DNA from: a virus
Reading direction: 5' to 3' (one strand)
Length of the DNA stretch: 64,000 nt
IMG/VR virus record: IMGVR_UViG_3300028837_000933
Location: 1-64,000 of that record
Shown here: positions 2,565 to 61,688 of the stretch, one piece after another
How the letters are laid out: each line of letters starts with the position of its first letter
Position numbering within the stretch: the stretch's first letter is position 1
Made by a program: the position numbers and the translations under genes
Notes under the pieces: generated by a model
Seen by the model: only the letters and a program-made list of their open reading frames with translations
Told to the model about the DNA's origin: nothing
Database searches by the model: none

Positions 2565-4564
2565 CAGATGAACTAACAACCATCGACACCACCGCAGAGT
2601 TCTTGCACGTCCATTCTGGACAGATGCGCACGTTCATGGACGAGGCGGAGCTGATCTCACTGGTCTGGAGCATCTACCATCGAGGGCTTACCCCCGACCA
2701 GCCCATCATCGCCGCCCCACGCGATAATGGGACCAGCTACGATTGCATCAGCGGCCACCGCCGCTTCCTGGCCTACTTGCTCGCCGCCCGCCTACGCGAC
2801 TCTCTCGCTGGTGGAGAGACCGACTACGAGGACATCCATGGCCTTGTAGAGCACTACAACGAAAGGCCGGGCGGGCTCATAGCCGCCTACGAGCCCCTCA
2901 AGGAAATGTACGCCGCTCTACCTCTTCGGCTCGTTCTGTTCGAGGGCAATGAGCGCGACCAGCAGCTGGCCATCATCAGCCACAATTTCGGCTCGGAGCA
3001 CCCCGACCTACTCGGCCAGGCGCGAGCCTTCGCCCGTGCTCTCAAACTCGGTTCAACAGTCAAGACGATCAGCCACAACGCAAGCGTCACACCCGCATAC
3101 GTCCGGAGCCTTGTTGCGATCACCGAACTACCCGAAAGCATCCAAACCCTGATCGGTGAGCGCCGTGTGGCCGTGGGAGCGGGCAAGGCAATCACGCAGC
3201 TACGGGCGGACAAGCAAGCTGGCGTGTGCAAGATGATCGAGTACCAGGGCTCCATCACCTTAGAAGTCATCCAGCGTGTCTGCAAGAACCTCAAAGACTG
3301 GGACGGTTTCCCTCTCCCGCTCGAGGCCCCGTCTCCAAAGATGTACCACCTACCTAGGCTGCTCAACGAGATATGGCAAGAGGCAGTGGTAGCCGACTCC
3401 TCTCAAGCCTGGGCCATCGCGGCCAACATCGCCCGCTGGCACGGCTGGAAAACCTCTCTATACGAGACAGATTGGATCGAGGGCCTTCTCACCGAGGACT
3501 ACATCACACAGGACATCTACCGCCGTAAGTCACCCAACTTCAAGCTCCTTCTACCCGAGTACTTGCCCCACATCACGTGCCAGGAATGCCCGCTAGGCAA
3601 ACTCCCCAAGTACCAACTGCATGAGGATCTGCCACCAGCGCAGTTCCCGTGCCGTGCCAAGAAGGAAGGCCCCTGCATCAATGCACCCATGGACGGAGCC
3701 CCGTTCATTGTTGAGGCGCCCCACTCCTGGCAGTCCCTACCCGGCCTCATCGATCAGACCAGCCACCGCGTTGTGATCTCCAGTCCCGAACTAATGGTTC
3801 AGGCTTGGAACGAGCAACACGGCAGGGAAGATGGCGAGCGTGAGCAAGACCTAGGAGTCTACGATGCCGTGGCCACAGGCAAACGGCCCATCGATAAGTT
3901 CCGTGCCGAGATCCGCCATTTCATGCAAAACCACACGGAGCTTTGGACCGAACACCCGCTGGCTACACCTTGCGGCGATTGCGTCCATATTCGCGAGGAT
4001 TCACCCACAAACGACCCAGACCTACCTTTCTGCGAGTGGGCCGCCCGGATGCGCAAAGCCGAGTTCTACGTCCGGAACCCCGAAGGTTTTGGCAAACCCA
4101 TTCCCGTTTGCCGACAGTACCAGCCCATCCCCGATGCCACATGGGAAGCGCTATTGCCGTCAACACCAGCGCCCGATCTCCCGCGGAAATGGATGCTGGA
4201 ACAGATCCGCCGCATGACCTTTCAGCTGAACCAGCAGCATCACCAACACTCGGCATCCGGCCGGCGCACGATGCTGGAGAGCTTCACCGGACGCCCAATG
4301 GTCAAGACCGTAGACCACTCTGGGTGGTTTGTCGAGCAACTTGAGGCGCACGAAGAGGCCCTGACCACGGAGCAACTCTGGACACTCACCCTGTTCGTCA
4401 CCTCTGACTGGCAGGCCATGACGCGCAGCCCAACCGGCGAGCACTACGAGCGCACATCAAGGTATCTGCTACTGGTAGACGGCCAGCCTCTATGGCACAA
4501 GGATGTCCCCTGGTTCGATTGGTGGAAAGCGTTCAAGAAGCAAGAGAAGGAGGATGCAGAATGA
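2561..4564 (+). CDS. ParB-like N-terminal domain protein with HTH and cysteine clusters
   Basis: A 667-residue protein. Residues about 20-135 form a ParB/sulfiredoxin-type domain with the SGHRR nucleotide-binding motif at 64-68. Residues about 165-210 form the ParB-type helix-turn-helix (TPAYVRSLVAITELP, then GERRVAVGAGKAI). The C-terminal 400 residues are an extension with two cysteine groups, CQEC..PC..PC near 330-370 and CGDC..FC..C near 470-510, that may bind zinc. Typical partition ParB proteins are about 300 residues, so this is a large, chimeric relative, as in many phages where such proteins serve in DNA binding, CTP-dependent loading or regulation. No ParA was seen. It overlaps its upstream and downstream neighbours by ATGA. 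Confidence 0.8.
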   Translation: MTDELTTIDTTAEFLHVHSGQMRTFMDEAELISLVWSIYHRGLTPDQPIIAAPRDNGTSYDCISGHRRFLAYLLAARLRDSLAGGETDYEDIHGLVEHYNERPGGLIAAYEPLKEMYAALPLRLVLFEGNERDQQLAIISHNFGSEHPDLLGQARAFARALKLGSTVKTISHNASVTPAYVRSLVAITELPESIQTLIGERRVAVGAGKAITQLRADKQAGVCKMIEYQGSITLEVIQRVCKNLKDWDGFPLPLEAPSPKMYHLPRLLNEIWQEAVVADSSQAWAIAANIARWHGWKTSLYETDWIEGLLTEDYITQDIYRRKSPNFKLLLPEYLPHITCQECPLGKLPKYQLHEDLPPAQFPCRAKKEGPCINAPMDGAPFIVEAPHSWQSLPGLIDQTSHRVVISSPELMVQAWNEQHGREDGEREQDLGVYDAVATGKRPIDKFRAEIRHFMQNHTELWTEHPLATPCGDCVHIREDSPTNDPDLPFCEWAARMRKAEFYVRNPEGFGKPIPVCRQYQPIPDATWEALLPSTPAPDLPRKWMLEQIRRMTFQLNQQHHQHSASGRRTMLESFTGRPMVKTVDHSGWFVEQLEAHEEALTTEQLWTLTLFVTSDWQAMTRSPTGEHYERTSRYLLLVDGQPLWHKDVPWFDWWKAFKKQEKEDAE

Positions 4565-4794
4565 AGGTTCGACTGGCAAGCCAAGAGACAACCGCCGCAA
4601 GCGATGTGGGTGGCACGCCACATGCCGTCCGGGCCGGGTTGGACGTTGTCCTAGAGGCCAAGCCGGGATGGGACGGCGTGCAGCTTTCGCTTGCAGACCC
4701 GAACAACGCGCCAGAATACTCGCGGACGTTCACGGTGAATCCGCGTGAACTCTCCGCGGCCGCGGAGATGTTAGAAGTTGTCTGCGCTGACTGA
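4561..4794 (+). CDS. Small hypothetical protein
   Basis: A 77-residue protein starting at the ATGA overlap with the ParB-like gene, with GGAGG upstream. The chain reads as a small alpha/beta unit (VRAGLDVVLEAKPGWDGVQL ... ELSAAAEMLEVVC). It has no motif I recognise. Tight coupling to the ParB-like gene suggests co-expression. Confidence 0.6.
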   Translation: MKVRLASQETTAASDVGGTPHAVRAGLDVVLEAKPGWDGVQLSLADPNNAPEYSRTFTVNPRELSAAAEMLEVVCAD

Positions 4795-5029
4795 CGACAC
4801 TTCAACGGCAGACGACTGGGCCGAGGCCCAGGTAATGACGATGACCTATGTCGATTGCTCTTGGTGCGGTACGCGGTCTTACTTCGAGGGCGACCCGTGC
4901 GAGGTCATCTGTCCAGATTGCGGAGGTCACTCTTTCCGCGACTCCTCCGGCGAGTGGCCCAAGGGAAACCTACTTGTGGCTACGATCAACGATCACGCCG
5001 CACCGCCCCAAGGCACGAGGACTGAGTAA
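4778..5029 (+). CDS. Small zinc-ribbon-like protein
   Basis: An 83-residue frame with two CxxC pairs, CSWC at about 27-30 and CPDC at about 45-48, 15 residues apart, the layout of a small zinc ribbon. The start is uncertain: TTG at 4778 overlaps the previous gene, while ATG at 4835 would give a 64-residue protein that keeps both knuckles. The partner and role are unknown. Confidence 0.55.
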   Translation: MSALTDDTSTADDWAEAQVMTMTYVDCSWCGTRSYFEGDPCEVICPDCGGHSFRDSSGEWPKGNLLVATINDHAAPPQGTRTE

Positions 5030-5030
5030 C

Positions 5031-5276
5031 ATGAGAAAGCTATGGTCTACCATCGATTATAAGTTCCATACGCTCTTGATACGACTCGAACTCTGGTTGC
5101 GTCAGTCCGTTTGCTCTCACTATTGGCACTGCGAGGCAAGGCCAATACCTGTGAGCCACAATCAAGTCGAACTATTCAGGCGGCGGCCCAATCTCACTAC
5201 CTGGTGGTGTGAGAAGTGCGGTAAGCGCATCATCAAAAGCCGGGAGTGGATTCCGCTCAACTACATACACCGATAG
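5031..5276 (+). CDS. Small Cys-containing hypothetical protein
   Basis: An 81-residue protein that begins one base after the preceding stop. It holds a possible zinc site made from C-S-H..H-C near residues 28-33 and WWCEKCGKR near 63-70. The N-terminal 25 residues are amphipathic. No family was recognised. It is one of a run of short zinc-type genes at 4.8-5.5 kb. Confidence 0.6.
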   Translation: MRKLWSTIDYKFHTLLIRLELWLRQSVCSHYWHCEARPIPVSHNQVELFRRRPNLTTWWCEKCGKRIIKSREWIPLNYIHR

Positions 5277-5277
5277 G

Positions 5278-5523
5278 ATGGCATTCTATACATGGGTGCC
5301 CTACACGTGGGCCTATCAGCAAGCGCAGTTGGACTTCCCGCCGTACAAGCGAAGGCGAGTTCATGTGCTGGACGAGTATCTAAACTGGGGCGAGAGAACC
5401 CTGTGCGGCTTGTTCACTACAGGCGGCGAATGGGGCGACAAGGTTACAGAGATGGACGGTAAGGACTACCAATGCAAGCGGTGCGTAGCGGCGTTGCGGG
5501 AAAGGATGCAGCGTGGAAAATGA
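5278..5523 (+). CDS. Small zinc-knuckle phage protein
   Basis: An 81-residue protein whose ATG follows the previous stop by one base. It has the layout of a common phage zinc-protein type: a histidine early (RVHVL), RTLCG in the middle, and YQCKRCVAALRER at the end. It overlaps the methyltransferase start by 11 bases, so it is probably co-translated with it. Confidence 0.6.
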   Translation: MAFYTWVPYTWAYQQAQLDFPPYKRRRVHVLDEYLNWGERTLCGLFTTGGEWGDKVTEMDGKDYQCKRCVAALRERMQRGK

Positions 5524-6775
5524 GTTCACGGTCGGCTCTCTCTACTCTGGAATTGGAGGGCTCGACTTAGGCTTAGGACGCGCCGGCATGATCACCATCT
5601 GGCAGGTCGAGCAGGACAAATGGCGTCGACGAGTTCTGGCAAAGCACTGGCCAAACGTAGATCGGAGCATCACGGATGACAGGAAAGCAGGCATCGAAAC
5701 CCTACCAACAGTCGACCTTATTGCCGGAGGCTTCCCTTGCCAATCTCACAGTGTGGCCGGGAAGCAAAGAGGCGCAGACGATGACCGCAACCGCTGGCCA
5801 GAGATGCTCCGTATCATTTCCGAACTCCAGCCCCGGTGGGTTCTTGCCGAGAATGTTCCTGGAATCATCAGTACCGGCTATCTCGAAACGGTGCTATCTG
5901 ACCTGGAGGGCGCGGGATATTGGGCATGGCCGATTGCTGTTCCTGCTGTGGCCTTCAATGCCCAACATCCAAGACTACGGATCTTCATTGTGGCCCACTC
6001 CCAAGAAGGGTGGCGGACGGAACTCGCGACAGGCCATCATAGACAAGAAAGGTGGCGGCAAACACAAATCGAGCTTGGCCTTGGAGCAAGCGGTGGAAGT
6101 GGCGGACGGGATCTTGCCGAGGGAACTGGAAGCGATCGACGAGCTTCCACCGAAGTACAGGGAGATGTTTCCGACTCCGAGGAACTCGCCAGCGATGGTG
6201 TACGGCACCGAGGACCAAGTACGGCGGACGGTGGAGAGGGACGGTTACAAGAGTCGGCTGGAAGAGGCCGTGATGTGGCCACCGACTCAGGATGCGGAAG
6301 GCACAGGGGGCCAAGCGAGGCCGCCAAGAGCGACAGCCGAGCGCCGGGAGGAGTATCTCAAACGAATGGCTCTCTGGCGCACACCCCAGGCGAGGGACTG
6401 GAAGAACGCGAGGAACCCAAAGAAATGGCTGGATGGCAACAGGCAGCCCGGCCTGGGCGACCAAGTGCGCGTGACGATAGAAAACCCGACCACGGTCGCG
6501 GAGAGGAACGGCCAGCTGAACGCCGACTGGGTCGAGGCGCTCATGGGATTCCCGCTCGGTTGGACGGACTTGACTTTGGTGGATGGACAGTCCCCGACCA
6601 CTGGCCAGACTCCTGGGAAGAAGGCATCCCCCGCATCGTCCAGCCAGGCGGCCTCAAGTATCGAAGACAGCGGCTCGAGGCCCTAGGCGATGCAGTCGTG
6701 CCCATTGTGGCGGAATGGATCGGTAGGCACATACTCGCCGCCGACAAGGTGTTACGAAACGTAGGAACTTCTTAG
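5513..6775 (+). CDS. C5-cytosine DNA methyltransferase
   Basis: A 420-residue enzyme that would transfer a methyl group from S-adenosylmethionine to cytosine C5. Motif I is at 8-20 (GSLYSGIGGLDLG), motif IV at 73-79 with the PCQ catalytic cysteine C76, motif VI AENV at 112-115, and motif VIII at 152-160 (HPRLRIFIV). Motif X is at about 391-397 (GDAVVP, usually GNAVVP). Between motif VIII and X lies about 220 residues of low-complexity, Gly/Arg/Ser-rich sequence with repeated 'DS.../...HTPGEGLEER' pieces. This is where other C5 enzymes hold the target recognition domain. The same DNA carries a second open frame of 336 codons. The likely use is protecting phage DNA from restriction; the target site cannot be read from sequence. 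Confidence 0.9.
   Translation: MENEFTVGSLYSGIGGLDLGLGRAGMITIWQVEQDKWRRRVLAKHWPNVDRSITDDRKAGIETLPTVDLIAGGFPCQSHSVAGKQRGADDDRNRWPEMLRIISELQPRWVLAENVPGIISTGYLETVLSDLEGAGYWAWPIAVPAVAFNAQHPRLRIFIVAHSQEGWRTELATGHHRQERWRQTQIELGLGASGGSGGRDLAEGTGSDRRASTEVQGDVSDSEELASDGVRHRGPSTADGGEGRLQESAGRGRDVATDSGCGRHRGPSEAAKSDSRAPGGVSQTNGSLAHTPGEGLEEREEPKEMAGWQQAARPGRPSARDDRKPDHGRGEERPAERRLGRGAHGIPARLDGLDFGGWTVPDHWPDSWEEGIPRIVQPGGLKYRRQRLEALGDAVVPIVAEWIGRHILAADKVLRNVGTS
5676..6686 (+). CDS. Overlapping phage 'WPTP/GFPLGW' family protein, fully inside the methyltransferase gene
   Basis: A 336-residue frame, +1 relative to the methyltransferase and on the same strand. It is not a random shadow. It shows the ordered motifs of a phage protein family I know from near methyltransferases: an N-terminal 'SSPGGFLPRMF' and 'CYLTWRARDIGHGRLLF' (about 51-90), several proline-tryptophan blocks (SLWPTP at 104-109, MFPTPR at 164-168, MWPPTQDA at 200-207, LWRTPQARDWK at 233-243), and the closing LNADWVEALMGFPLGW at 281-296. 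In the other frame the same DNA gives the variable region of the methyltransferase. ATG 5676 has GGAG about nine bases upstream. The function is unknown; the overlap suggests a role linked to target recognition or modification. Confidence 0.65.
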   Translation: MTGKQASKPYQQSTLLPEASLANLTVWPGSKEAQTMTATAGQRCSVSFPNSSPGGFLPRMFLESSVPAISKRCYLTWRARDIGHGRLLFLLWPSMPNIQDYGSSLWPTPKKGGGRNSRQAIIDKKGGGKHKSSLALEQAVEVADGILPRELEAIDELPPKYREMFPTPRNSPAMVYGTEDQVRRTVERDGYKSRLEEAVMWPPTQDAEGTGGQARPPRATAERREEYLKRMALWRTPQARDWKNARNPKKWLDGNRQPGLGDQVRVTIENPTTVAERNGQLNADWVEALMGFPLGWTDLTLVDGQSPTTGQTPGKKASPASSSQAASSIEDSGSRP

Positions 6776-6807
6776 GATTACCATAGGAAACGTAACAAGG
6801 AGGAACG

Positions 6808-7101
6808 ATGGACGAGCCACAGGTTGTTGACTTCATTGACCAATTCTGCGAGGCGTTGCGCCAGCAACTCCTAGAGGACGCCGAGCGCCACGGCAGCACT
6901 TGGCTGGAACTGAACCGCAAGGATCAAGTCTTTCGCATTCGCGACCGCCTAGACCAGTACTTCCACGAATGGGTCGTAGGCGGAGGCGTCAACGGTCCAG
7001 ATTATCCCTGGCTCAAAGGCGCTGGCAACATGATGATCGGCTGGATTCGCGACAACTTCCCTGGACTATCTGCGTGCTGGTCCGATGAAGACGTTAGTTG
7101 A
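6808..7101 (+). CDS. Hypothetical protein
   Basis: A 97-residue, probably all-helical protein with AAGGAGG upstream of ATG 6808. The core 'STWLELNRKDQVFRIRDRLDQYF' followed by a proline-glycine turn and 'WLKGAGNMMIGWIRDNFP' suggests two helical hairpins. I recall similar short phage proteins with an 'AGNA.IGWIRE' segment, but no function. It is preceded by 30 bases with no clear promoter. Confidence 0.65.
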   Translation: MDEPQVVDFIDQFCEALRQQLLEDAERHGSTWLELNRKDQVFRIRDRLDQYFHEWVVGGGVNGPDYPWLKGAGNMMIGWIRDNFPGLSACWSDEDVS

Positions 7102-7147
7102 CGCCCATCTAGCCCACCTAGCGCGGCGAGCGCTGGAAGGAGACAAC

Positions 7148-7399
7148 ATGAAAAGCGGTGAAACGTTCATGGTAAGCGAGGAGTGCGACCAGGCTCTCCA
7201 GGCCACGATCAGCAATCTGGAAGGCGCCTACTCGGCGTTCGAGGTGGCGTCCAAACGAATCGCCCACGAGCGGAAGAACCTATTCAGGATCATCCGCGAG
7301 AACCATCCGGAGCTGGAGGGACACGAGTTCAGCACCGACAGGAAGGATGGAAAGATCGAGGTCACGGTCATGTGGCACGATGACGGGCCAGGATCATGA
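7148..7399 (+). CDS. Small hypothetical coiled-coil protein
   Basis: An 83-residue protein. ATG 7148 has a strong AAGGAG seven bases upstream; an in-frame ATG at 7085 would overlap the preceding gene and has a weaker site. A helical stretch (CDQALQATISNLEGAYSAF) is followed by a basic helix and a small beta end. It ends in an ATGA overlap with the endolysin gene, so it may be translated with it. The role is unknown. Confidence 0.6.
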   Translation: MKSGETFMVSEECDQALQATISNLEGAYSAFEVASKRIAHERKNLFRIIRENHPELEGHEFSTDRKDGKIEVTVMWHDDGPGS

Positions 7400-8781
7400 G
7401 AGTAGGAGTACACGGCAGAAATGCCACAAACTACGAGGAAGCCGACTTTGAACTCATAGAGCGAGCCAAGATAGACCAGATGGTCGTGATGAGCTTCACT
7501 GAGCCGGCGAACCTCCAGCGTATCCGCACGATCCGCCCGGACTTGGAGTTTCTCATCCGGCTCTATACGGGCGGCTTTGGGCCGGGACATCATCCCGGCG
7601 CTATGCGCTTCTGCTCTGAAGTCATCCCGCAAGTCGCTAGGCTCCAGCCCTTTGCCAAGCGCTTCCAAATCCACAACGAGCCCAACCATGCCCACGGCAC
7701 GGAAGGATGGGACGCAAGCAACGCCTCTGCCAAGGACTTTGCCGCCTGGTACGACACGGCGTTCACAATCTTGAAGTCAGAGTTCCCGCATCTCCAGTTC
7801 GGCTTCCCTGGCTTGGCTGTCCCTGGTTTCGTTCACCGCGACTACCAATGGCTGGATATTTGCGCTAGGCAGATCCAAATGAGCGACTTCCTAGGCGCAC
7901 ACGCGTACTGGCAGGGCGTGGACCAGGAAAATATGTGGTCTGATCAGTGGGGTCTGCGATTCAAGAACTATCACAAGCGATTCCCCAACAAGCGCATCGA
8001 ACTGACCGAGGTCGGCAACAGCACGGAGGGCATCGATCCCGAGGTCGTGGCCTACGAGTATCCCAACTACTACTCCGCCCTTATGCACTATCCGTACCTT
8101 GGCGGCGTCTCGCCGTTCATCGCATCCAGTCCCGATCCTCAGTGGGGAGACTTCACATGGCGCTACGAGAATGGCAACATGAAGCCCGTAGTAGAAGCCG
8201 TGGGCTGGCTTCCCAGGATTTTCCCGCCAACGATACCGGAAATCATCAACGTCCGCAACCAGCTACCAGTCAATCGCAAGGCCAAGCCATACGGCCGGCG
8301 TTCTCTGAACCAGCTCCGGTGGATCGTCTTTCACCACAGCGATGCCCCACCGAGCCATCCTGTAGAGCGCGTTGCCTGGTATCACACACGCGTCCGCAAG
8401 TACCGCCGAATCGCTTACCACTTCTACGTTGGCCTAGACTACGTGGATGGCGTGCCGGTAGTCACAATCTACCAAACCAACCGCGTGCGCACGCGGTCCT
8501 GGCACACGGGCGGGGATGCCAACACGTTCGGTATCGGCGTTTGTATCGCAGGCTCGTTTATGAACGGACGCATCCCACACGAACTACAGATCCAAATGGC
8601 CGAAGCCCTATGCGACTATCTGTACTACAAGTTCCCATCGCTCACCATCGACTGCGTCAAACGCCACAAAGACTTCAGGCAGACCGCTTGCCCAGGCAAG
8701 ACTTCAGATCCGCCCGATTCCTGGTACTTCCAGATGGTTGACAGACTCAAGCTCAAATGGAGTAGACACCCAAATGGCTAG
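7396..8781 (+). CDS. Endolysin: glycosidase-like barrel fused to N-acetylmuramoyl-L-alanine amidase
   Basis: A 461-residue, two-domain protein. Residues 1-275 look like a TIM-barrel glycoside hydrolase with an acid/base NEP motif at 94-96 (HNEPN) and a candidate nucleophile in LTEVGN near E205. Residues about 300-460 are an Amidase_2/PGRP domain: HHS at 313-315, YHF at 341-343, SWHTGG around 369-373, RHKDF at 423-427 and ACPG at 431-434, which together supply the usual His/Cys zinc ligands. The amidase would cut the bond between MurNAc and L-Ala in peptidoglycan. There is no signal peptide, so release needs a holin or another route. Both lytic activities in one chain would be economical. Barrel activity is inferred from motifs only. 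Confidence 0.85.
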   Translation: MRVGVHGRNATNYEEADFELIERAKIDQMVVMSFTEPANLQRIRTIRPDLEFLIRLYTGGFGPGHHPGAMRFCSEVIPQVARLQPFAKRFQIHNEPNHAHGTEGWDASNASAKDFAAWYDTAFTILKSEFPHLQFGFPGLAVPGFVHRDYQWLDICARQIQMSDFLGAHAYWQGVDQENMWSDQWGLRFKNYHKRFPNKRIELTEVGNSTEGIDPEVVAYEYPNYYSALMHYPYLGGVSPFIASSPDPQWGDFTWRYENGNMKPVVEAVGWLPRIFPPTIPEIINVRNQLPVNRKAKPYGRRSLNQLRWIVFHHSDAPPSHPVERVAWYHTRVRKYRRIAYHFYVGLDYVDGVPVVTIYQTNRVRTRSWHTGGDANTFGIGVCIAGSFMNGRIPHELQIQMAEALCDYLYYKFPSLTIDCVKRHKDFRQTACPGKTSDPPDSWYFQMVDRLKLKWSRHPNG

Positions 8782-9173: not shown

Positions 9174-9650
9174 ATGACTGATGCTCACTCCGTGAAGGTA
9201 GCGATCGTCACCGATGTCTACGCTGATGGCATCGATGAGGAACGCGCCCAAATACTAGAAGAGTTTGAAGCTCGACTACAAGATGCCAGCCGGGAGCCGG
9301 TTTCTGTGGTCTTGGTGGCTTCAGGCAGAGGCATTCACGAGGTCAAAGACAAGACCTGTGACGTGCTCATCTTCGACTATGGCGCCGCACAGTTTGGCGC
9401 AACGGAAATGGCGCGGTGCCAGGCCAATGACGCCCACAAGTGGGCGGAGGATCACCCATCAAGCGTACTCCTGCTGTGGACATCGTTCACCAAGCAAATC
9501 TACGAAGCGGAATGGGGCGCGTACAGCAACCATGCGAATGTGATCTATCGCTTCGAGTCACCCCCGCTCGAGGCCGATGATGACGACCTATTCGACCATG
9601 TGTTCATAGCGATTGCCAAGTGGCTCGGGCTACTGGAATCGGAGGACTGA
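9174..9650 (+). CDS. Rossmann-like hypothetical protein
   Basis: A 158-residue protein with an alternating strand-helix pattern: VKVAIVTDVY, then a helix, SVVLVASGRGIHEV, DVLIFDYGA, another helix, SSVLLLWTSF, NVIYRFES and a closing helix. This resembles the receiver or flavodoxin-like fold, but the usual phosphate or nucleotide motifs are not evident. It could be a DNA-end or regulator protein; I do not assign a function. It precedes the PAPS-reductase-like gene, with its stop just before that gene's TTG start. Confidence 0.7.
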   Translation: MTDAHSVKVAIVTDVYADGIDEERAQILEEFEARLQDASREPVSVVLVASGRGIHEVKDKTCDVLIFDYGAAQFGATEMARCQANDAHKWAEDHPSSVLLLWTSFTKQIYEAEWGAYSNHANVIYRFESPPLEADDDDLFDHVFIAIAKWLGLLESED

Positions 9651-9652
9651 CG

Positions 9653-10510
9653 TTGATCGCGCTATCCTGGGGCTTAGGCAGAAACAGCACATGGCTGCTG
9701 GTCAAAAGCATCCACGAGGGCAACCCGCCCGATGTGGTCTTGTTTCTCGACACGGGGATCGAACACGAATCCACGTACTGCGTAGAGCGCTGGTACGTCA
9801 AGAACGTGATCGGGCCGGCTGGCATCGACTACGTTCGGCTTACGCCCCAGACGCACCCGCAGTACTACGACAAGTACGTTGCGGAGCGCACGCTCTTGCA
9901 GTTCTGCCGCGACAAGCAAGTCGTTCCTTTGGGCGCGGCAAAGTGGTGCAGTTCTGATTGGAAGTCCCGCCCTGGTAACGCCTGGCTGCCTGAGCATGGC
10001 TGCACGGAGAACTGGGTGGGCTTCACTGCGGAAGAGACGAGGCGCGTTATTCGGCGGGGCTGCTGGATGCCCGAGACGGAGGCCGACCGCGTCTCGCAAT
10101 CCAGCTTTGACTTCTTGGCCCAGATCCCCAAAAAGTACAAGCGACCGAGCGAGCGCGGCGTTAGACCTACATGGGTGTTACGTGCGCCATTGTGGGAAGA
10201 GGACGAGACTCTTCAGGACTGCCTGGACGGCTTGGAAGCCCACGATATGCTGGTGCCGGACAAGTCAGGTTGTCGGATTTGCCCGTTTCACGTAGTAGAG
10301 GCGCTGAGGGGCGCACGCGGGGGTGATGAATTGGCCATCGATACCATCGAATTGATGATGACGCTGGAGGATTCGGCCAGTCAGAAGGCCGGGCGCAGGG
10401 TCGGCATCATGGCCACTGGTGAAAGTGTGACGCAACTTTGGACACTCAATCAGCCACTAGATGGCTTGGACATTCCAGCAATCTATCGGCCCTGTGAGTG
10501 CGCCGTCTGA
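9653..10510 (+). CDS. PAPS reductase-like (adenine nucleotide alpha-hydrolase) protein
   Basis: A 285-residue protein from a TTG start preceded by GGAGGA at good distance; no suitable ATG exists. The N-terminus 'IALSWGLGRNSTWLL' corresponds to the SGGxxS PP-loop, and 'PDVVLFLDTGIEHESTY' is the second strand-helix typical of phage PAPS-reductase-like proteins. A C-terminal 'GCRICPFHVVEAL' supplies a Cys pair used by many phage members. Relatives include sulfate assimilation enzymes and DndC-type DNA sulfur-modification enzymes. In phages the substrate is generally unknown; nearby methyltransferase and ASCH genes make nucleic acid or nucleotide modification plausible. Confidence 0.75.
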   Translation: MIALSWGLGRNSTWLLVKSIHEGNPPDVVLFLDTGIEHESTYCVERWYVKNVIGPAGIDYVRLTPQTHPQYYDKYVAERTLLQFCRDKQVVPLGAAKWCSSDWKSRPGNAWLPEHGCTENWVGFTAEETRRVIRRGCWMPETEADRVSQSSFDFLAQIPKKYKRPSERGVRPTWVLRAPLWEEDETLQDCLDGLEAHDMLVPDKSGCRICPFHVVEALRGARGGDELAIDTIELMMTLEDSASQKAGRRVGIMATGESVTQLWTLNQPLDGLDIPAIYRPCECAV

Positions 10511-11622: not shown

Positions 11623-12024
11623 ATGAGCGTCCAGTTCGGCTTTTTTCCAGGTGAAGAGATGGTTGTTGCTGGCGATGCGGTCGACCGCATCAAGTGGGTC
11701 TTGGACCATTACCCGCCTACCCGCGACAACAAGAAGCTGTTCATGGCCCTGTATCGTCTTGAGGCTGAAGGCTTGGCCTCTCGCTTCCAGATGGTGGCTT
11801 CGAGGATGGCAGATCAATACAAGCTCACCGCGGCCGAGGAGCAGGAATTGTACCACATGCTCTACGATGAGTTCCGTGCCTGGTACATCCATCATGCCAA
11901 GTCGGCTAAGACGGTTCTCAACAGGCTCATGGAGATCCAGAAGAACCCCAAGTACGAGCCGTCTGACGATGAACGCAAGCGCCGTGACAAGCAATCCAGA
12001 GTGACTGGAGGAAACGTGCGATGA
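11623..12024 (+). CDS. Hypothetical helical protein
   Basis: A 133-residue protein starting with no gap after the preceding TAG. It is largely helical, with strongly charged segments (KLTAAEEQELYHMLYDEFRAW) and a basic C-terminus (DDERKRRDKQSRVTGG). No motif was recognised. The end overlaps the tandem-HTH gene by 4 bases (ATGA), which suggests coupled translation. Confidence 0.65.
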   Translation: MSVQFGFFPGEEMVVAGDAVDRIKWVLDHYPPTRDNKKLFMALYRLEAEGLASRFQMVASRMADQYKLTAAEEQELYHMLYDEFRAWYIHHAKSAKTVLNRLMEIQKNPKYEPSDDERKRRDKQSRVTGGNVR

Positions 12025-12689
12025 CACAAGCGTATGCAGGCATCTTGGGTACGAGAAACCACCGGGCGAAGCTCACGGCCGAAGAGGTGCTTGAGATTCG
12101 CCGCAAGTACTGTTCCAAGGAGGCCACCCAGCAAGAACTAGCACGCGAATACCACGTGACGCAGCCCACCATCCACCACATCCTCAACCGCCACACCTGG
12201 CGTCATCTGGAGCCCCTCTCGGAAGAGGCAGAGCTTCCGGAGTGCTTGCACGACTTCGATGTTGGCAACAAGGGCTACTCCAAGCTGTCGCCCGAACAGG
12301 TCACCCAGATCCGCGAGCGTTACGCGAGCGGCGAGAGCGACCAGCGGACTCTCGCTAGAGAGTTTGGGGTCTGCCAAACCCATATCTCAGCTATCGTGCT
12401 GGGCCTTTGCTGGAAGCACCTACCGATGATGCCAAACAACGGGCACGGCACAAGGGGAGAGCGCAACCCGCGCTCAACGTTCACAAATGGTGATGTTCAG
12501 GCCATACGGCGCAAGTACCTCACGGGCTGCATCTCGCAGACCGATCTTGCTTCGGAATACGGCGCACACACGTCAACGATTTCCATGATTCTGCGTCGAC
12601 GGACTTGGTCACATCTTCCCTTGGTACAAGGGGAAGAAAGGATAGGGAGCCTACTGAAACGAGGACGGAGGATACCACAAGGAGACTGA
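12021..12689 (+). CDS. Three tandem helix-turn-helix repeats, DNA-binding protein
   Basis: A 222-residue protein built of three copies of a helix-turn-helix unit about 50 residues long: roughly 17-62, 85-133 and 150-200. Each copy reads 'LT.EEV..IR.KY......Q..LA.EY.V....I..I...R.W.HL'. The units are linked by charged or glycine-rich spacers. This resembles the DNA-binding repeats found beside homing endonucleases and resolvase-like HTH domains, but no nuclease motif is present. It would bind an extended DNA site of three successive half-turns. A second array protein of a different repeat type is at 21780. It could be a repressor, an origin binder or a scaffold. Confidence 0.75.
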   Translation: MTQAYAGILGTRNHRAKLTAEEVLEIRRKYCSKEATQQELAREYHVTQPTIHHILNRHTWRHLEPLSEEAELPECLHDFDVGNKGYSKLSPEQVTQIRERYASGESDQRTLAREFGVCQTHISAIVLGLCWKHLPMMPNNGHGTRGERNPRSTFTNGDVQAIRRKYLTGCISQTDLASEYGAHTSTISMILRRRTWSHLPLVQGEERIGSLLKRGRRIPQGD

Positions 12690-12690: not shown

Positions 12691-13620
12691 ATGGCAGAGT
12701 TCACAATGCACTTTTGCGGGCACTATGGAACCGTGTTCGAGGGTGGCGACACACAACGAACACTCTACGAAGCCTGCACCCAAGATGAGCAGCCCGTATG
12801 CCCCTACGGAATAGGGGAAAGCGAGCGCGACCGCTGCGGGTGTTGGGGATGTAGGCTCTATCTCACCGGCTGGCGACGTGGCGATGAGCCGACTAAGGCG
12901 GCCCGCTGGGTGGACGGTCGCAATCTAGCCGCTCAGACACCTGTCTACGGAGGCGGGATCGCAGAGGGCACTTTACAGACCAACCGCATAGCCTGTGGAA
13001 CGAGTGTGCGAGAAGACTTCATCTTCGGGCTTAGCGCCGTCATCCAGGCCATAAGCGCAACGTCCGCGGCATCGGTCTTTGGCGTTGTGTCGCCTATCTC
13101 GGGGAGCATTACTGCGGTTTCCACCACACCCACTTCGAGCATTATCGGCTTCATGTGGCTGTATTCGGCTACAATTGCTGCCGTCTCAACAACGCCCGCT
13201 GCTGTCCTTGGCTTTATCTTCGAGATGGCGGCATCGATGGACATTGCATCGACAACGCCCGACACGCCGGATCTCATCAAGGGACGGCACTTCGATGATG
13301 CGCTGATACTGGCAGCTTCAACAACGCCCGATACCGTGGATCTGCCCGTAGCGAGGAACATGCTGGCTACACTCGCGGCCGCTTGCACCACGCCGGACAC
13401 ACCGATTCTTGCGGTTGAGCGCGAATACGCTGCCACACTGGCCCCAGCTTCCAGCACACCCGACACTGTCGCACTCGACTGCTGGGAACTGTTCTCAGCC
13501 ATACTGGCGGCCGCTTCCACCACGCCGGACACCGTAGCCCTGGCGGTTCAGCGCGAATACGCTGCCGCAATCGATGTCGCTGCCACCACGCCAGACGATG
13601 TGGATCTGACGATCAGCTAG
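12691..13620 (+). CDS. Cys-rich head plus eight STTPD-type repeats
   Basis: A 309-residue protein. Residues 1-110 are a compact, Cys-containing head (CGHYG, VCPYG, RCGCWGC) that may bind zinc. From about 115 to the end there are eight units of 20-25 residues with the pattern 'FAA.I.AASTTPDTV.L.V.RE'. The same repeat fills most of the 994-residue minus-strand protein at 57747. At DNA level 13531-13560 matches 59880-59909 on the other strand with only a few differences. The repeat probably forms a fibrous or solenoid structure; the plus-strand gene may have captured it by recombination. No signal peptide is visible. The next gene is a glycosidase-like protein. Confidence 0.7.
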   Translation: MAEFTMHFCGHYGTVFEGGDTQRTLYEACTQDEQPVCPYGIGESERDRCGCWGCRLYLTGWRRGDEPTKAARWVDGRNLAAQTPVYGGGIAEGTLQTNRIACGTSVREDFIFGLSAVIQAISATSAASVFGVVSPISGSITAVSTTPTSSIIGFMWLYSATIAAVSTTPAAVLGFIFEMAASMDIASTTPDTPDLIKGRHFDDALILAASTTPDTVDLPVARNMLATLAAACTTPDTPILAVEREYAATLAPASSTPDTVALDCWELFSAILAAASTTPDTVALAVQREYAAAIDVAATTPDDVDLTIS

Positions 13621-13629: not shown

Positions 13630-14541
13630 ATGGGATACAAGCATCTAGGAGCACACGTAAACTGGACCGCACAAGACGTTGACCTACTCATCGAAACCTG
13701 GAAGCCGCCGCTCGTTGTGTTGCTCGACCAAAGCGAGGGCTGGAGGCGTGTCAAGCGATCGTGCCCAAACACGATCTTCGTTGGCAGAATCATGCTCGAC
13801 CATCAGCCCGACTTCAACCAGCCTCTCGATGTGCCACAATACGCAGCCGAGTTTGTCGCCACGGTGCGGCCCATGGTGGAGCGGATGATCGATGTCTGGG
13901 ACTACATGCAAACTCTCAACGAGCCGGTGATCAATAGCGTTGAGGCGGCCCAGCGACTTGGTGAGTTCGAGATGATCGTAATGAGCTGGCTCCACGACTT
14001 CACAGGCGGCAGGATCAAGCCGGCCATCTTCTCGTTCGGCGTAGGACATCCCACGGACTTGGGCGCTTTCTGGCCGCCTCTTCTTCACGCGCTCGAAATG
14101 TGCAAGAATCAAGGCGGCGCCCTGGCCAAGCACCAATACGACTGGCCCAATCTGAACCGTGACCCAAAGTGGTACATATTGAGACATAGATTGGACTACG
14201 GCGGCTGTCCAGAACAGGGCTGGCCGGGCTTCCCCGAGCACTTGGCCGATCTTCCGCTGCTTATCACGGAGTGTGGGCTCGATGGCTTGATAGAAGGCGG
14301 AACACCCCGAGGCTGGCGCACACTCTACACAGATCCCGAAACTAGCATAGTCGATCCGGCTCCTTACCTACAAGAACTCACATGGTTCGATGAGCAGCTA
14401 CACCAAGACAAGCAAGTCAAGGGAGCCGCGGTGTACTGTTTCATCGGCGGCGCTGTATGGGAAGCCTACGAGTGTATGCCAGAGATAGGCCACGGCTTGG
14501 CGCAAGAGGCCACGCCGATCTATCGAACGTCTTGTACCTAG
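13630..14541 (+). CDS. Glycoside hydrolase-like TIM-barrel protein
   Basis: A 303-residue protein. It has the two acidic sites of clan-A type glycosidases: TLNEP with the candidate acid/base E98, and LLITECG with the candidate nucleophile E214. The strand-helix spacing fits a TIM barrel. It has no signal peptide, so it either works in the cytoplasm, is released at lysis, or is on the virion. GGAGG lies upstream of ATG 13630. It resembles the barrel halves of the proteins at 7396 and 48523 in layout but not closely in sequence. The substrate cannot be named from sequence; peptidoglycan or surface glycan is plausible in a phage. Confidence 0.7.
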   Translation: MGYKHLGAHVNWTAQDVDLLIETWKPPLVVLLDQSEGWRRVKRSCPNTIFVGRIMLDHQPDFNQPLDVPQYAAEFVATVRPMVERMIDVWDYMQTLNEPVINSVEAAQRLGEFEMIVMSWLHDFTGGRIKPAIFSFGVGHPTDLGAFWPPLLHALEMCKNQGGALAKHQYDWPNLNRDPKWYILRHRLDYGGCPEQGWPGFPEHLADLPLLITECGLDGLIEGGTPRGWRTLYTDPETSIVDPAPYLQELTWFDEQLHQDKQVKGAAVYCFIGGAVWEAYECMPEIGHGLAQEATPIYRTSCT

Positions 14542-17456: not shown

Positions 17457-18224
17457 ATGAAGACAAGGCTACTGGTTACGTTCCTCCTCCTGCTCTTGGT
17501 GTTGTTCATCGGCACTGAGGGTCAGGCGCTAACCAACGGCATGAAGATCATCGAAGCCCCCAATGTAGATGACTATGAGTGCGATTCGACAGAGTGGCAC
17601 TTTGTCATCACTCAGGCAGATCCGGCGAGGATGCCAGAATCGATCTTTGTGACTTGGGACTGTGGCGGTCCTATCGAAGTGCCACTGGCAGGCATAAGCG
17701 GCTCCACAGGGCACTACTACTACTATGACAATCTCACGTGTCGTCTCGTCAAGGTTTGGGCTGAAATCTACATAGAGTTCGATGGCAACTTCCGTGTAAG
17801 TCATGGCCCCTGTCTTGAGGAACCAACGCCAACACCTACCAACACGCCAACAGCAACGAATACACCCACACCCACGGACACACCAACCGCAACCCCAACT
17901 CCGACCAACTCACCCACGCCAACGGATACCCCTACAGCTACGCCTACCGCAACACCAACCAACACAGCCACGGCTACCCCTACGCCTACCGATGGACCGA
18001 GCCCCACACCCACCAACACACCCACGGCAAGCAACACGCCCACACCTTCCAAGACGCCCACACTCACACCCACTCCCACAAGCACTAGACGAGTCACACC
18101 TACTCCAACGCCAACCGATGTACCCTTCGTCCCCGAGGCGTCAACAATCGGCTTGATGGTGCCTGCGTTGGCGGCTGGAGCGGCCTACATTGGTCTTCAG
18201 CTACGCAGTCGGCGCCGGAAGTAA
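17457..18224 (+). CDS. Secreted Thr-Pro-rich protein with PEP-CTERM-like anchor
   Basis: A 255-residue protein in four parts: a signal peptide ([19 protein letters not shown]); a folded domain of about 95 residues with Cys pairs; a Thr-Pro tract of about 85 residues with units like [10 protein letters not shown]; and a C-terminal 'PEAST' motif, hydrophobic helix and RSRRRK tail. This matches PEP-CTERM-type sorting signals (V-P-E-x-S/G-T, helix, Arg cluster), which are processed by exosortase-type enzymes, and Chloroflexota proteins often carry such TPTP tracts. A phage that makes a host-style surface protein may change the cell envelope, for example to exclude other phages. The exact motif lacks the second Pro of PEP. 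Confidence 0.75.
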
Positions 18225-57469: not shown

Positions 57470-57742
57470 CTACCTCTCTTTACAGTCCACCAAGAACGAG
57501 CGATCGTCTCCACCGCCGCCCGTGAAGGTTACGCGATTGGTCACTCGGTACACCTGCCCAGCTGTCCCACCGCTGATCCAAATCGCGGTCGCCGTATCGC
57601 TGTAGGTCGATGACTCCTCATTCAGACCGGAAGGCATTATCCAGGTGCTTCCACTGAGCGTGTCGCTACCCAGCCAGGTCTCCCAATTGAAACCATAGGG
57701 CAGTTCCGCATCCGGGTCTTTTGGAACAATCGGCAGGGCCAT
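57470..57742 (-). CDS. Small fiber-adaptor-like protein
   Basis: A 90-residue protein with GAGGTAGACC upstream. It matches a common small phage type that opens 'KDPDAELPYGFNWETWLG' and has a 'TATAIWISGGTAGQVYRVTNRVTF' and 'DDRSFLVD' end; such proteins are often called fiber-tail adaptors. The match is good in order and spacing but I cannot check it by search. It lies just before the giant repeat protein in coordinates (downstream in transcription), consistent with an attachment role. Confidence 0.6.
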   Translation of the reverse strand: MALPIVPKDPDAELPYGFNWETWLGSDTLSGSTWIMPSGLNEESSTYSDTATAIWISGGTAGQVYRVTNRVTFTGGGGDDRSFLVDCKER

Positions 57743-57746: not shown

Positions 57747-60731
57747 CTACCTCACTTCAAACACACGGATCTCAGCCGGCACATCGAAGACGCGAAGTTC
57801 AGCCGGCACAAGGAAATAATCGGCCACGTTCATCAATAAGAGCGGAACAGTATCAGGCGTCACGCTCGCGGCGTGTATCAGGGCTGCAAAGTTTGCCTCC
57901 CCCACGGTGAGAACCACGTCATCGGGCGTGCTCGAGACAGCGCTCAGCACTGCGGCTAGGTTCGTTGCTAGGTCCAGATTAGCTGTCGGCGTGGTCGACT
58001 GAGCGGCAATGATAGCCGCCATGCGGAAGATGATCCCCAGCATGGCAGTATCGGGAGTGATGGACCCCGTGGCTATCGCTGCGACATAGGCTCTAGTAAC
58101 CGCCAGCACTACCGTATCGGGCGTGCTGCTGTCAACACCAACCGCCGCGGCTATCGGCAGCACCAGCCCCAGGATCGCATCGGGCGTTGTCGAAACCGCA
58201 TCCAAGGACGCCGTCATCGCCATGACGGCGGTCATGTCTACTGTGTCGGGCGTAGTCGATGCAGCCTCCAGCGATGCGACCATCTCCCGGCTAACTGCCA
58301 ATGGCACCGTGTCGGGCGTTGTGGTCGCGCTATCCAGAGCCGCCGCGAATGACTTGATGATGTCCAGCGAAATGTTGTCGGGCGTGGTGGATGCGGCCAA
58401 AATCAGCGCATCATCGAAACTCGGTTGTCGGTCGAGCGATGCAGTATCAGGCGTTGTTGAGACTGCGTCCAGGGAAGCCGTCATCTTCATGACGGCAGTC
58501 ATGTCTACGGTGTCGGGCGTGGTGGAAACCGCGGCAATGGTGGCCGCGAAAAGAATATCAGCCTCCACGTCCAGTTCCACGGTGTCGGGCGTGGTGGAAG
58601 CCGTATCGATGGCAGCGGAGTACTTCCTGGACACAGCCAGTTCAAACGTGTCGGGTGTGGTTGACACCGCATCCAGGGACGCGACCATCTCCCGGCTAAC
58701 TGCCAATGGCACCGTGTCCGGCGTGGTCGTGGCCGTGTCGATGGACGCAACCAAGCTCGGTTGTCGGTCGAGCGCAACGGTATCCGGTGTGGTCGATGCG
58801 GCTACCGCTGATGCGGCCAGTTCGCAGAACACATCCAGGACTACGCTGTCCGGTGTCGTGCTGGCGGTGTCGATGGTAGCCGCGTACTCGCGAGTGACGG
58901 CCAGCGGCACCGTGTCGGGCGTGGTTGATACAGCCGCCAGGATCGCATCCAGTTCGCAGAACACATCCAGGACTACAACGTCCGGTGTGGTGCTCGCGGC
59001 AGCGGCCAGGGCCGCGAAGGTCTTTATGATCGTCAGCTCGACCGTGTCGGGCGTGGTGGAAGCCGTATCGATGGAAGCCGCGAGCTTCCTGGACACAGTC
59101 AGTTCAAACGCATCGGGTGTGGTGGATGCGGCCAAAATCAGTGCATCATCGAAACTCGGTTGTCTGTCGAGAGAGACCGTGTCCGGCGTGGTCGTGGCCG
59201 TATCGATGGCGGCCGCGAGTTTCCTTGTAATTGCCAAGGTAACGGCATCGGGAGTGGTGGAAACGGACGCCAGGATCGCATCCATCTCCACGAACACGTC
59301 CAGTTCCACGGTGTCGGGTGTCGTGCTGGCGGTGTCGATGGTAGCCGCGTACTCGCGAGTGACGGCCAGCGGCACCGTATCGGGTGTGGTTGAAACGGCC
59401 GCCAGCGTGGCATCCAGTTCGCAGAACACGTCCAGGACTACAACGTCTGGGGTTGTAGTCGCGGCAGCGGCGAGGGCTGCGAAGGTCTTTATGATCGTCA
59501 GTTCGGCGGTGTCGGGTGTTGTGGATGCGGCCAAAATCACCGCGTCATCGAAACTCGGTTGCCGATCGAGCGATGCGGTATCAGGCGTTGTTGAGACTGC
59601 GTCTAATGAAGCCGCAAACTCAATGGTGGCCGTGAGACCAACGTTATCGGGTGTGGTTGACGCTGCATCCAGTGTAGCGGCCAGTTCGATCACGGCGGTC
59701 AGGGCTACGGTGTCGGGCGTAGTCGATGCAGCCTCCAACGATGCGACCATCTCCCGGCTAACTGCCAATGGCACCGTGTCGGGTGTAGTCGCAGCCGCAT
59801 CGATGGCAGCCACGAACTCCCTAGTGACCGCCAGGGGCACGGTGTCGGGCGTGGTCGAAGCTGCGGTGATGACAGCCACGTACTCGCGCTGCACCGCCAG
59901 GGCTACGGTGGTAGGCGTAGTCGAAACAGCTGCACAGACCGCTGAGAAGTTGACATCCTGCCCAACATCCTCGTACAGCGCAGTGATCGCGCCTACCCAC
60001 TCAGAAGAAGAGGAGATCGTACCCGTGACCGTGTCGCCTGTTAGGGCCGTGGCCAGTCGGTACTCCAGCTGAACGGCCACGTTGGATTCGCCGGCGCCTG
60101 CTGTGCCCGACCCGATCGGTGTCCCTAGGTTGGTGTAATCGGCATCTGCGGAGACCGTGACGTTCGTCTTGTTCTGGATGCCCGTCACGTGCAGCATCAA
60201 GTAGTCGCGCTCGGTTAGACTGCTGATGGTCGTGCTTACACTGGTTCCGCTACCATTGGAGCCAGTATCAGCCTCTTCGGTAACGCTTCCAGCCGTGGAG
60301 AACTCCCAGACGCCGATCGCCCGTGCGTAGCAGCTGTGGTGCGTACCCGTGACGGTATCGCTGGCCGCGGTGGTCAGCGCGGTTGTCAGTTCGCTCATCC
60401 AGAGGCTGACGGTCACGCCATCGTTGGCAGAGCCAGATGACCGCGTCCACTCTACGAGTTTTGTGTAGGCGTTGGACTGGTCATCCTGGACCTGCGTGTG
60501 ATCCGTACTGGCACCGCTGGTGGTTGTGTTGTTGTCGGTGACGAGAACAACGATCGCAAGGTCTCCGACCGCTATGTCTGCTGTTACATCGACAGCAGAA
60601 GTAGTGCCGGTGGACCTAAATCCTGCGCCTCCTCGTTCTCCTTGGTAAGCAAATGCCATTTTCTTCGGTTTCTTGGGCTTCTTCGGTTTTTTAGGCTTTT
60701 TCTCCTCGGTGCGACCGAGTGGCGCCCACAT
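57747..60731 (-). CDS. Giant virion protein with about 32 STTPD repeats
   Basis: A 994-residue protein. A Lys/Pro tract (EKKPKKPKKPKKPKK) starts it. Residues about 25-240 form a jelly-roll-like domain ('VDVTADIAVGDLAIVVLVTDNN'). From about 250 to 970 there are about 32 units near 22 residues of the form 'REYAATIDTASTTPDTV.L.V', with some replaced by 'SLDRQPSFDDA.ILAASTTPD'. A C-terminal 'PAELRVFDVPAEIRVFEVR' closes it. The repeat probably makes a long beta or solenoid fibre. Units are alike enough that recombination can change their number. The start could instead be the internal Met after the Lys/Pro tract. Confidence 0.75.
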   Translation of the reverse strand: MWAPLGRTEEKKPKKPKKPKKPKKMAFAYQGERGGAGFRSTGTTSAVDVTADIAVGDLAIVVLVTDNNTTTSGASTDHTQVQDDQSNAYTKLVEWTRSSGSANDGVTVSLWMSELTTALTTAASDTVTGTHHSCYARAIGVWEFSTAGSVTEEADTGSNGSGTSVSTTISSLTERDYLMLHVTGIQNKTNVTVSADADYTNLGTPIGSGTAGAGESNVAVQLEYRLATALTGDTVTGTISSSSEWVGAITALYEDVGQDVNFSAVCAAVSTTPTTVALAVQREYVAVITAASTTPDTVPLAVTREFVAAIDAAATTPDTVPLAVSREMVASLEAASTTPDTVALTAVIELAATLDAASTTPDNVGLTATIEFAASLDAVSTTPDTASLDRQPSFDDAVILAASTTPDTAELTIIKTFAALAAAATTTPDVVVLDVFCELDATLAAVSTTPDTVPLAVTREYAATIDTASTTPDTVELDVFVEMDAILASVSTTPDAVTLAITRKLAAAIDTATTTPDTVSLDRQPSFDDALILAASTTPDAFELTVSRKLAASIDTASTTPDTVELTIIKTFAALAAAASTTPDVVVLDVFCELDAILAAVSTTPDTVPLAVTREYAATIDTASTTPDSVVLDVFCELAASAVAASTTPDTVALDRQPSLVASIDTATTTPDTVPLAVSREMVASLDAVSTTPDTFELAVSRKYSAAIDTASTTPDTVELDVEADILFAATIAAVSTTPDTVDMTAVMKMTASLDAVSTTPDTASLDRQPSFDDALILAASTTPDNISLDIIKSFAAALDSATTTPDTVPLAVSREMVASLEAASTTPDTVDMTAVMAMTASLDAVSTTPDAILGLVLPIAAAVGVDSSTPDTVVLAVTRAYVAAIATGSITPDTAMLGIIFRMAAIIAAQSTTPTANLDLATNLAAVLSAVSSTPDDVVLTVGEANFAALIHAASVTPDTVPLLLMNVADYFLVPAELRVFDVPAEIRVFEVR

Positions 60732-60869: not shown

Positions 60870-61688
60870 CTAGGACATGGTGATGTCGAGATCCCCCGCG
60901 GGGAACTTTGCAGTGTCCCCGTTGTCAACGGCCTGATCGGTCATGCCGTTGTCATAGAAAAGGAGATCCCCGGCCGTCACGGCCGAACAGATGGCCACGG
61001 CTATGATGGTTCCCCAGTTGGCGGTGGCGGTGGTGAAGGTGATGTCATCGTTGTTGTCCACCAATCCAGCAGCGGCATTGTTCCAATCCGGTGCGGCTCC
61101 GCCATTCGGAGTCACTTGCTCCCTGGCGTACGAGCCACCACTGGGCTCGGTGATCGTGGAACCCGTCATACCGTCCGTGACCGGGTTCGTGATGATCAAG
61201 GCCACGTAGGTGTCGGGCGCCGCGTACGCCTGGTTGCGGAACATCAGATCCAGAAGGTCGATGCACAGGCTGTCGGAGATTTCGCCGGCGCTGAAGGTGA
61301 CATCGATCTCGCCGGAGGCGATGGATGGCGTGTTCCCGCTGACGATCGACTTGCCGGACGCGAACTGTCCGTGGGCGAGCATGTTTCCAGTCCCATGCGC
61401 ACTGGCGTCCACAATCGCCCAGTGGGTAACGGTTCCCCAGGAGCCCGTGGCCTCGGGGAACGTCACCGCGCCCGTCTGGTCCACGGCACGGCTGGCCGCA
61501 GCGGCAAACGTAATGGCGGTTCGGGCGTAGGAGCCCGAGTCGGCGCACTCGCTCATCGAGGCGCCCGTACCCGCATCCGTTGGGTCTGCGGTACAGAGCG
61601 CCACATACACTGTGGCAACGGGGCTGTACGCCGCGTTGCACACATGGTCGAGCAACTCAAGTTCTGCGTAGTCTGAAAGGCTTCCCAT
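60870..61688 (-). CDS. Virion protein with two copies of a tail-fiber-like domain
   Basis: A 272-residue protein with GGAGG upstream. It has two copies of a phage domain of about 130 residues. The first includes 'ELELLDHVCNAAYSPVATVYVALCTADPTDAG', then 'SYARTAIT', 'WGTVTHWAIVDA' and 'GNMLAHGQF'; the second includes 'LLDLMFRNQAYAAPDTYVALIITNP', 'SYAREQVTPNG', 'NWGTIIAVAICS' and 'GDLLFYDNGM'. Such single domains are a common phage protein usually annotated as tail fibre or hypothetical, so this is an internal duplication. It is probably a surface protein of the virion. Confidence 0.75.
   Translation of the reverse strand: MGSLSDYAELELLDHVCNAAYSPVATVYVALCTADPTDAGTGASMSECADSGSYARTAITFAAAASRAVDQTGAVTFPEATGSWGTVTHWAIVDASAHGTGNMLAHGQFASGKSIVSGNTPSIASGEIDVTFSAGEISDSLCIDLLDLMFRNQAYAAPDTYVALIITNPVTDGMTGSTITEPSGGSYAREQVTPNGGAAPDWNNAAAGLVDNNDDITFTTATANWGTIIAVAICSAVTAGDLLFYDNGMTDQAVDNGDTAKFPAGDLDITMS

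What the first reader, a model, noticed from the sequence alone, without database searches (positions are those of the whole stretch)
12691..13620. STTPDTV repeats shared by two genes on opposite strands 44 kb apart
Eight units at the end of a plus-strand gene match the 32-unit protein at 57747-60731. At DNA level 13531-13560 and the complement of 59880-59909 differ at only a few bases. Inverted homologous repeats of this size could recombine, invert the segment between, and move units between genes. This may be a system for changing fibre length or antigenic form.
Basis: partly seen in the sequence, partly recalled or inferred. Interest (0 to 1): 0.75.

Follow-up and report, generated by a model that had tools for sequence, protein, structure and literature searches.

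The report
Phage tail-fibre repeats in two genes
Two genes of one tailed phage carry the same 22-amino-acid repeat; the long one belongs to a conserved virus-surface appendage module (adaptor, fibril, repeat protein), the short one is an old, diverged copy, and nothing indicates that the two recombine or flip the genome.

Summary
P0002 (57747-60731, -) has 32 units of about 22 aa; P0001 (12691-13620, +) has eight TP-bearing units plus one degenerate. The arrays are specific kin: 48% aa identity over 201 columns, against at most 36% to other phages' arrays. DNA matches of 14 bp or more exceed codon-shuffled expectation (14 vs 2.7; 0 of 500). But the longest exact match is 18 bp and overall nucleotide identity is about 65%.

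The inversion/switching idea is not supported. P0002 lies between homologues of two Ralstonia phage GP4 appendage proteins, Gp80 (fiber I) and Gp77 (fiber-tail adaptor), both in PDB 8JOU. The repeat lies beside Gp80 in about eleven other phage lineages; in one contig it is fused to Gp80 twice. Phage LSH1 has such a three-protein module, found in virions by mass spectrometry; its large protein has a region its authors could not explain, and a relative (Slicko01) has a roughly 20-aa array in its C-terminal half. An inversion inside P0002 would split this operon.

Best reading: P0002 is the array-bearing outer part of a GP4-type appendage, lengthened by duplication within the gene; P0001 is an old transplanted piece of that array on a Cys-rich protein, function unproven.

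The parts
57747..60731 (-). P0002, 994 aa: K-rich start, N-terminal globular domain with no match (about aa 25-255), 32 tandem ~22-aa units (about aa 257-978), C-terminal VPAELRVFDVPAEIRVFEV tail
   Evidence: no Pfam, NCBIfam, PDB or GenBank-phage relative
12691..13620 (+). P0001, 309 aa: Cys-rich N-terminal region with no relatives found, then eight TP-bearing units plus one degenerate unit up to the stop codon; no VPAExR-type tail
   Evidence: AGGAGA-type ribosome site just 5' of the ATG read in the sequence
60870..61688 (-). Gp80 homologue (GP4 fiber I protein), 272 aa, two stretches matching the family
   Evidence: PF23140 E 1.6e-65; PDB 8jou_a E 1.2e-4; phrog_240
57470..57742 (-). Gp77 homologue (GP4 fiber-tail adaptor), 90 aa, immediately downstream of P0002
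   Evidence: PF23148 E 1.2e-23; PDB 8jou_D E 3.7e-4; sequence
58572..59528 (-). Internal duplication of P0002: two ~500-bp copies, 79% identical, offset 465 bp (7 units), containing the 62-bp exact direct repeat at 59378 and 58913
13249..13581 (+). Units A4-A8 of P0001, best co-linear with units B12-B16 of P0002
   Evidence: 66% nt over 326 bp; unit-order permutation P 0.02 (DNA) and 0.013 (protein), 0.05 and 0.18 after centring; blastp in the same register, 48% over 201 columns

Best explanation
P0002 is the large, array-bearing outer component of a virion appendage of the kind known from Ralstonia phage GP4: a Gp77-like adaptor fastens a Gp80-like fibril to the tail, and the fibril carries a large protein with an N-terminal domain and a long shaft of 20-23-aa beta repeats. 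The number of units sets the reach of the shaft and changes by in-frame duplication and loss inside the gene. P0001 is a second gene outside the module that long ago received roughly nine units from the P0002 array (or the reverse) and now evolves separately; most likely it is a small accessory surface protein that uses the repeats as a spacer. Shown: both arrays, their kinship, the gene neighbourhood and its recurrence, the fusions, the duplications inside P0002. Inferred: position in the virion, shaft role, beta structure, effect of unit number, direction of the transfer, role of P0001.
For: P0002 is flanked by PF23140 Gp80 and PF23148 Gp77, both matching PDB entry 8JOU. A search with the repeat alone hit four distinct lineages (L006, L017/L018, L007, L020), all with Gp80 as the next gene. 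A scan with Gp80 brought in further lineages whose neighbour matches the repeat profile: L024, L025, L029, L031, L034/L028/L036, L035, and weakly L037. L037 has two ORFs that fuse array and Gp80. Of 151 control ORFs one has a 20-23-aa period of comparable strength, and it is a minor tail protein near a Gp77 gene in Mycobacterium phage Aegeus. LSH1 gp34-36 is such a three-gene module, detected in virions, with the published working model gp36 to gp35 fibril to gp34 payload (PMC13243795); the Slicko01 relative carries a ~20-aa array. One-unit difference between L006 and L017. P0001 is closer to P0002 than to any other array.
Against: No virion proteomics or structure of this phage. AlphaFold models are poor (pLDDT 54 and 45; all beta but unreliable) and Foldseek found nothing significant. 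Gene order is Gp80-array-Gp77 here but array-Gp80 in L006, L007, L017, L020 and L024, so the module is rearranged between lineages. P0001 lies outside the structural gene block and its N-terminal part has no known relative. The window's tail has a tape measure protein whereas GP4 is a podophage, so the attachment site must differ. The Slicko01 Gp80 match is below Pfam's cut-off.
Confidence: 0.7

Rival explanations
1. The two arrays are inverted recombination partners: recombination between them inverts the 44-kb segment and swaps array parts, switching fibre length or identity.
For: Opposite orientation, real DNA kinship, partly co-linear blocks.
Against: Longest identity 18 bp, ~65% overall; no recombinase seen beside either array among the genes scanned. 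The breakpoint would split gp80 from gp77 and leave part of the structural genes on the other strand. Other lineages keep the array gene co-directional with Gp80.
Confidence: 0.03
2. P0001 is itself a virion appendage part, a second short fibre or decoration protein, perhaps working with the neighbouring gene at 13630-14541.
For: Other lineages carry two or three array genes (L020, L007, L037).
Against: There the array genes lie next to each other and to Gp80; P0001 is far away in the plus-strand block, and its neighbour gave no family match.
Confidence: 0.35
3. P0001 is a chimeric ORF (array piece captured behind an unrelated gene) without function.
For: No relatives of its N-terminus; the array ends mid-unit at the stop codon; the only array found outside a fibre module.
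Against: The reading frame is intact over 309 aa despite ~35% nucleotide divergence from P0002; good ribosome site; most unit consensus positions are kept.
Confidence: 0.2
4. The similarity is convergence on a simple S/T-T-P-D-T repeat, not common descent.
For: Short, low-complexity-like unit; several repeat types of similar period exist beside Gp80.
Against: Excess of shared DNA beyond codon usage; a shared rare 23-aa unit type ending FDDALILAA; 48% identity to P0002 against 26-36% to other arrays.
Confidence: 0.04

Closest known systems
Ralstonia phage GP4 fiber I and fiber-tail adaptor (Pfam PF23140 Gp80, PF23148 Gp77; PDB 8JOU)
   Same: Homologues of both proteins flank P0002 directly
   Different: This virus has a tape measure protein (long tail) whereas GP4 is a podophage; the array protein has no Pfam or PDB match; Gp80 here has two matching stretches
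Alishewanella phage LSH1 gp34-gp35-gp36 module (PMC13243795) and Slicko01 WGH49683.1
   Same: Three co-occurring virion proteins: one matching the GP4 fibril in 8JOU, one Ig-like, and a large one whose C-terminal region defeats AlphaFold; the Slicko01 relative has a ~20-aa period there
   Different: gp34 has a lyase-like beta-helix N-terminal domain, P0002 does not obviously; the arrays were not shown to be homologous by sequence; LSH1 itself was not available to check
crAssphage BACON tandem repeats (PMC6949934)
   Same: Tail-associated beta-domain tandem array grown by sequential duplication
   Different: A different, larger, already described domain
Enterococcus phage EfV12-phi1 tail fibre (PMC6365445)
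   Same: In-frame tandem duplication changes the length of a tail-fibre gene, there during experimental coevolution
   Different: 1.8-kb unit, unrelated sequence
Mycobacterium phage Aegeus gene 25, minor tail protein (phrog_9784)
   Same: Array of 20-aa period, VPAExR-type C-terminal tail, gene near a Gp77 homologue
   Different: Glycine-rich N-terminal domain; repeat consensus differs

Membership tests
GP4-type appendage module (Gp77 adaptor + Gp80 fibril), for P0002 | Gp80 homologue next to the array gene | tested here: met
   PF23140 E 1.6e-65, 60870-61688
GP4-type appendage module (Gp77 adaptor + Gp80 fibril), for P0002 | Gp77 homologue next to the array gene | tested here: met
   PF23148 E 1.2e-23, just downstream of P0002
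GP4-type appendage module (Gp77 adaptor + Gp80 fibril), for P0002 | Proteins present in the virion | not testable with these tools
   Shown for LSH1 gp34-36 by mass spectrometry in PMC13243795, not for this virus
22-aa STTPDTV-type arrays beside Gp80 | Profile match to arrays of other phages | tested here: met
GP4-type appendage module, for P0001 | Gp80 or Gp77 gene adjacent | tested here: not met
   Upstream gene 12021-12689 matches HTH/HNH families; downstream 13630-14541 has no match
Recombinational inversion switch | Long near-identical inverted repeats | tested here: not met
   Longest exact inverted match 18 bp, ~65% identity
Recombinational inversion switch | Dedicated recombinase with crossover sites | tested here: inconclusive
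   None seen in the genes scanned, but not all genes were scanned
Recombinational inversion switch | Both orientations present in a population | not testable with these tools
   No reads available
Described repeat family (Pfam, NCBIfam, PDB) | Match of the array to a described family or structure | tested here: not met
   No Pfam or NCBIfam hit; PDB profile searches empty or spurious

The most novel reading that the evidence does not exclude
A widespread, undescribed class of 20-23-aa beta-repeat shafts is a standard component of GP4-type adaptor-fibril appendages across many tailed phages, and its units can spread to other genes of the same phage, as in P0001.
Probability: 0.5. Interest if true: 0.55.

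Novelty: new variant of a known kind. Interest (0 to 1): 0.4.

Why it matters
The flanking genes tie an unannotated repeat family to a structurally characterised appendage, and suggest an answer to a question left open in the LSH1 paper: why a predictable domain is always followed by long unpredictable sequence (in Slicko01 it is a tandem array). Because Gp80 and Gp77 have Pfam models, array genes can be found by neighbourhood, and appendage length becomes something that can be compared across phages. P0001 shows that units can settle outside the module.

Tried and rejected
Single-protein searches for relatives of P0002, of P0001 and of the P0002 N-terminal domain gave nothing. A first pseudo-alignment slid out of register and was discarded. 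Both AlphaFold jobs gave low confidence; their common content, all-beta, is stated only as consistent. Foldseek hits are not significant. The BIR hit on P0001 (E 0.019, below cut-off) was rejected. The periodic ORF in L054 is a different, leucine-rich-type repeat and was not counted. Identical arrays in L028/L034/L036 come from contigs too closely related (99.8-100%) to test unit-count stability. Convergence was rejected by the codon shuffle.

Full report
What the source is. The window is the first 64 kb of a 121,820-bp virus record of IMG/VR. It is a tailed phage: terminase large subunit, head morphogenesis proteins and a tape measure protein are encoded on the minus strand, a DnaB-like helicase and a sliding clamp near the far end. 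The host is unknown.

The observation. P0002 (57747-60731, minus) has 32 units with spacing 21-24 aa; P0001 (12691-13620, plus) has eight TP-bearing units plus one degenerate unit at its C-terminal end. The rest of the record holds no further array.

Is the kinship at DNA level real? When synonymous codons are shuffled and both proteins kept, the arrays share 2.7 exact matches of 14 bp or more on average; 14 are observed, and none of 500 shuffles reaches that. The longest match, 18 bp, is within the shuffled range (P 0.17). A second, unrelated 18-bp inverted repeat occurs in the same window. So the arrays descend from common DNA, but long ago. The best block is A4-A8 with B12-B16, 66% over 326 bp; unit-order permutations give P 0.02 (DNA) and 0.013 (protein), weakening to 0.05 and 0.18 when unit averages are removed, so co-linearity is suggestive, not proven. 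P0001 matches P0002 at 48% over 201 columns but arrays of other phages at 26-36%: the relation is specific to this genome.

P0002 itself. It contains direct repeats of up to 62 bp exact and a ~500-bp, 79% identical pair offset by 465 bp, i.e. a 7-unit duplication. Growth by duplication inside the gene is therefore documented. Among relatives, L006 and L017 (84% identical over 5.1 kb across the locus) differ by exactly one 22-aa unit.

What module it belongs to. The gene upstream of P0002 is PF23140 Gp80, GP4 fiber I protein (E 1.6e-65); the gene downstream is PF23148 Gp77, GP4 fiber-tail adaptor (E 1.2e-23). Both hit PDB 8JOU. Searching IMG/VR with the repeat alone gave four distinct lineages (L006, L017/L018, L007, L020), all with Gp80 as the next gene. 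Searching with Gp80 gave 33 loci; a profile of the array matches neighbours in L024, L025, L029, L031, L034/L028/L036, L035 and, weakly, L037. The Gp80 scan is biased towards relatives of the window's own Gp80. In L037 two ORFs carry array and Gp80 in one polypeptide, which argues that the two proteins work together physically. Array proteins begin with different N-terminal domains, a Laminin_G_3 lectin domain in L024 for example, and several end in short VxAExR-like repeats. As control, one of 151 other ORFs shows a comparable 20-23-aa period, and that one is a minor tail protein near a Gp77 gene.

Published counterpart. Siphophage LSH1 has a three-protein module, gp34-36, detected in virions by mass spectrometry. 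gp35 matches the GP4 fibril in 8JOU, gp36 is Ig-like, gp34 has a C-terminal region that AlphaFold cannot model; the authors mention a repetitive motif as one possible reason, and propose that gp36 attaches a gp35 fibril that carries gp34 (PMC13243795). In Slicko01, whose protein the paper names as a relative of gp34, I find an array of 20-aa period in the C-terminal half of a 1,850-aa reading frame; that this frame is the protein meant in the paper is my identification. A gene two places downstream matches Gp80 only weakly (E 0.0036, below cut-off).

How it most likely works. Adaptor (Gp77-like), fibril (Gp80-like) and array protein form a tail appendage; the array is a beta-rich spacer or shaft, its unit number setting the reach. 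Shown: genes, neighbourhood, fusions, homology, duplications inside the gene. Inferred: location, oligomeric state, the role of length. Structure prediction does not settle it: six units pLDDT 54, four units pLDDT 45, both all-beta, no significant Foldseek match.

P0001. It has a Cys-rich N-terminal region without relatives, then the array, no VPAExR tail, no Gp80 or Gp77 neighbour. Its upstream neighbour resembles HTH/HNH proteins, its downstream neighbour matched no family. Other phages also carry several array genes (L020, L007, L037), but side by side; in the eleven related records searched whole, no array was found away from the fibre locus, though those contigs are fragments. A transfer within the genome long ago is the simplest account; which way it went, and what P0001 does, are open.

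The inversion hypothesis. It needs long identical inverted repeats or a recombinase; the first were tested and not found, the second was not seen in the genes scanned. It would also cut between gp80 and gp77. I rate it at 3%. Length change by recombination inside P0002 is a different and plausible matter, with precedents in other phages (PMC6365445, PMC6949934), but it was not tested in a population.

Verdict. Real, specific homology; a rather ordinary origin (tail-appendage repeats) and not a switch; some added interest because the repeat family is unannotated, recurs beside Gp80 in many lineages, and bears on an open question in a recent paper.

Noticed in passing
L037:831-3986 and 4384-6783: Two ORFs in tandem each fuse a 22-aa H-rich repeat array (SHxHTAEN type) to a Gp80 domain, followed by a third array ORF at 6787-8379.
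   Followed up: partly
L062:5569-11100 (Slicko01 WGH49683.1): Large protein with an array of ~20-aa period (DKSxFDI type) in its C-terminal half, probably the region reported as unpredictable in LSH1 gp34 and its relatives.
   Followed up: partly
window 60661-60702: 18-bp tandem repeat giving KPKKPKKPKKPKK at the very start of P0002; the real start may be the ATG after it.
   Followed up: no
window 17892-18030: 54-bp tandem repeat (2.6 copies) with a Thr/Pro-rich consensus, overlapping ORF 17457-18224.
   Followed up: no
window 12021-12689: Protein with repeated HTH/HNH-like segments directly upstream of P0001; possibly a mobile endonuclease relative next to the transplanted array.
   Followed up: no
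window 18789 and 44826: An 18-bp exact inverted repeat 26 kb apart, unrelated to the arrays.
   Followed up: no
window 2561-4564, 5513-6775, 9620-10510, 26011-26937: ParB-like protein, DNA methyltransferase, PAPS-reductase-like protein and sulfatase-modifying-factor-like protein in the plus-strand block.
   Followed up: no
L017 and L018: Array DNA is 100% identical while the contigs around it align at about 92%, which suggests recent exchange or strong conservation of the array.
   Followed up: no
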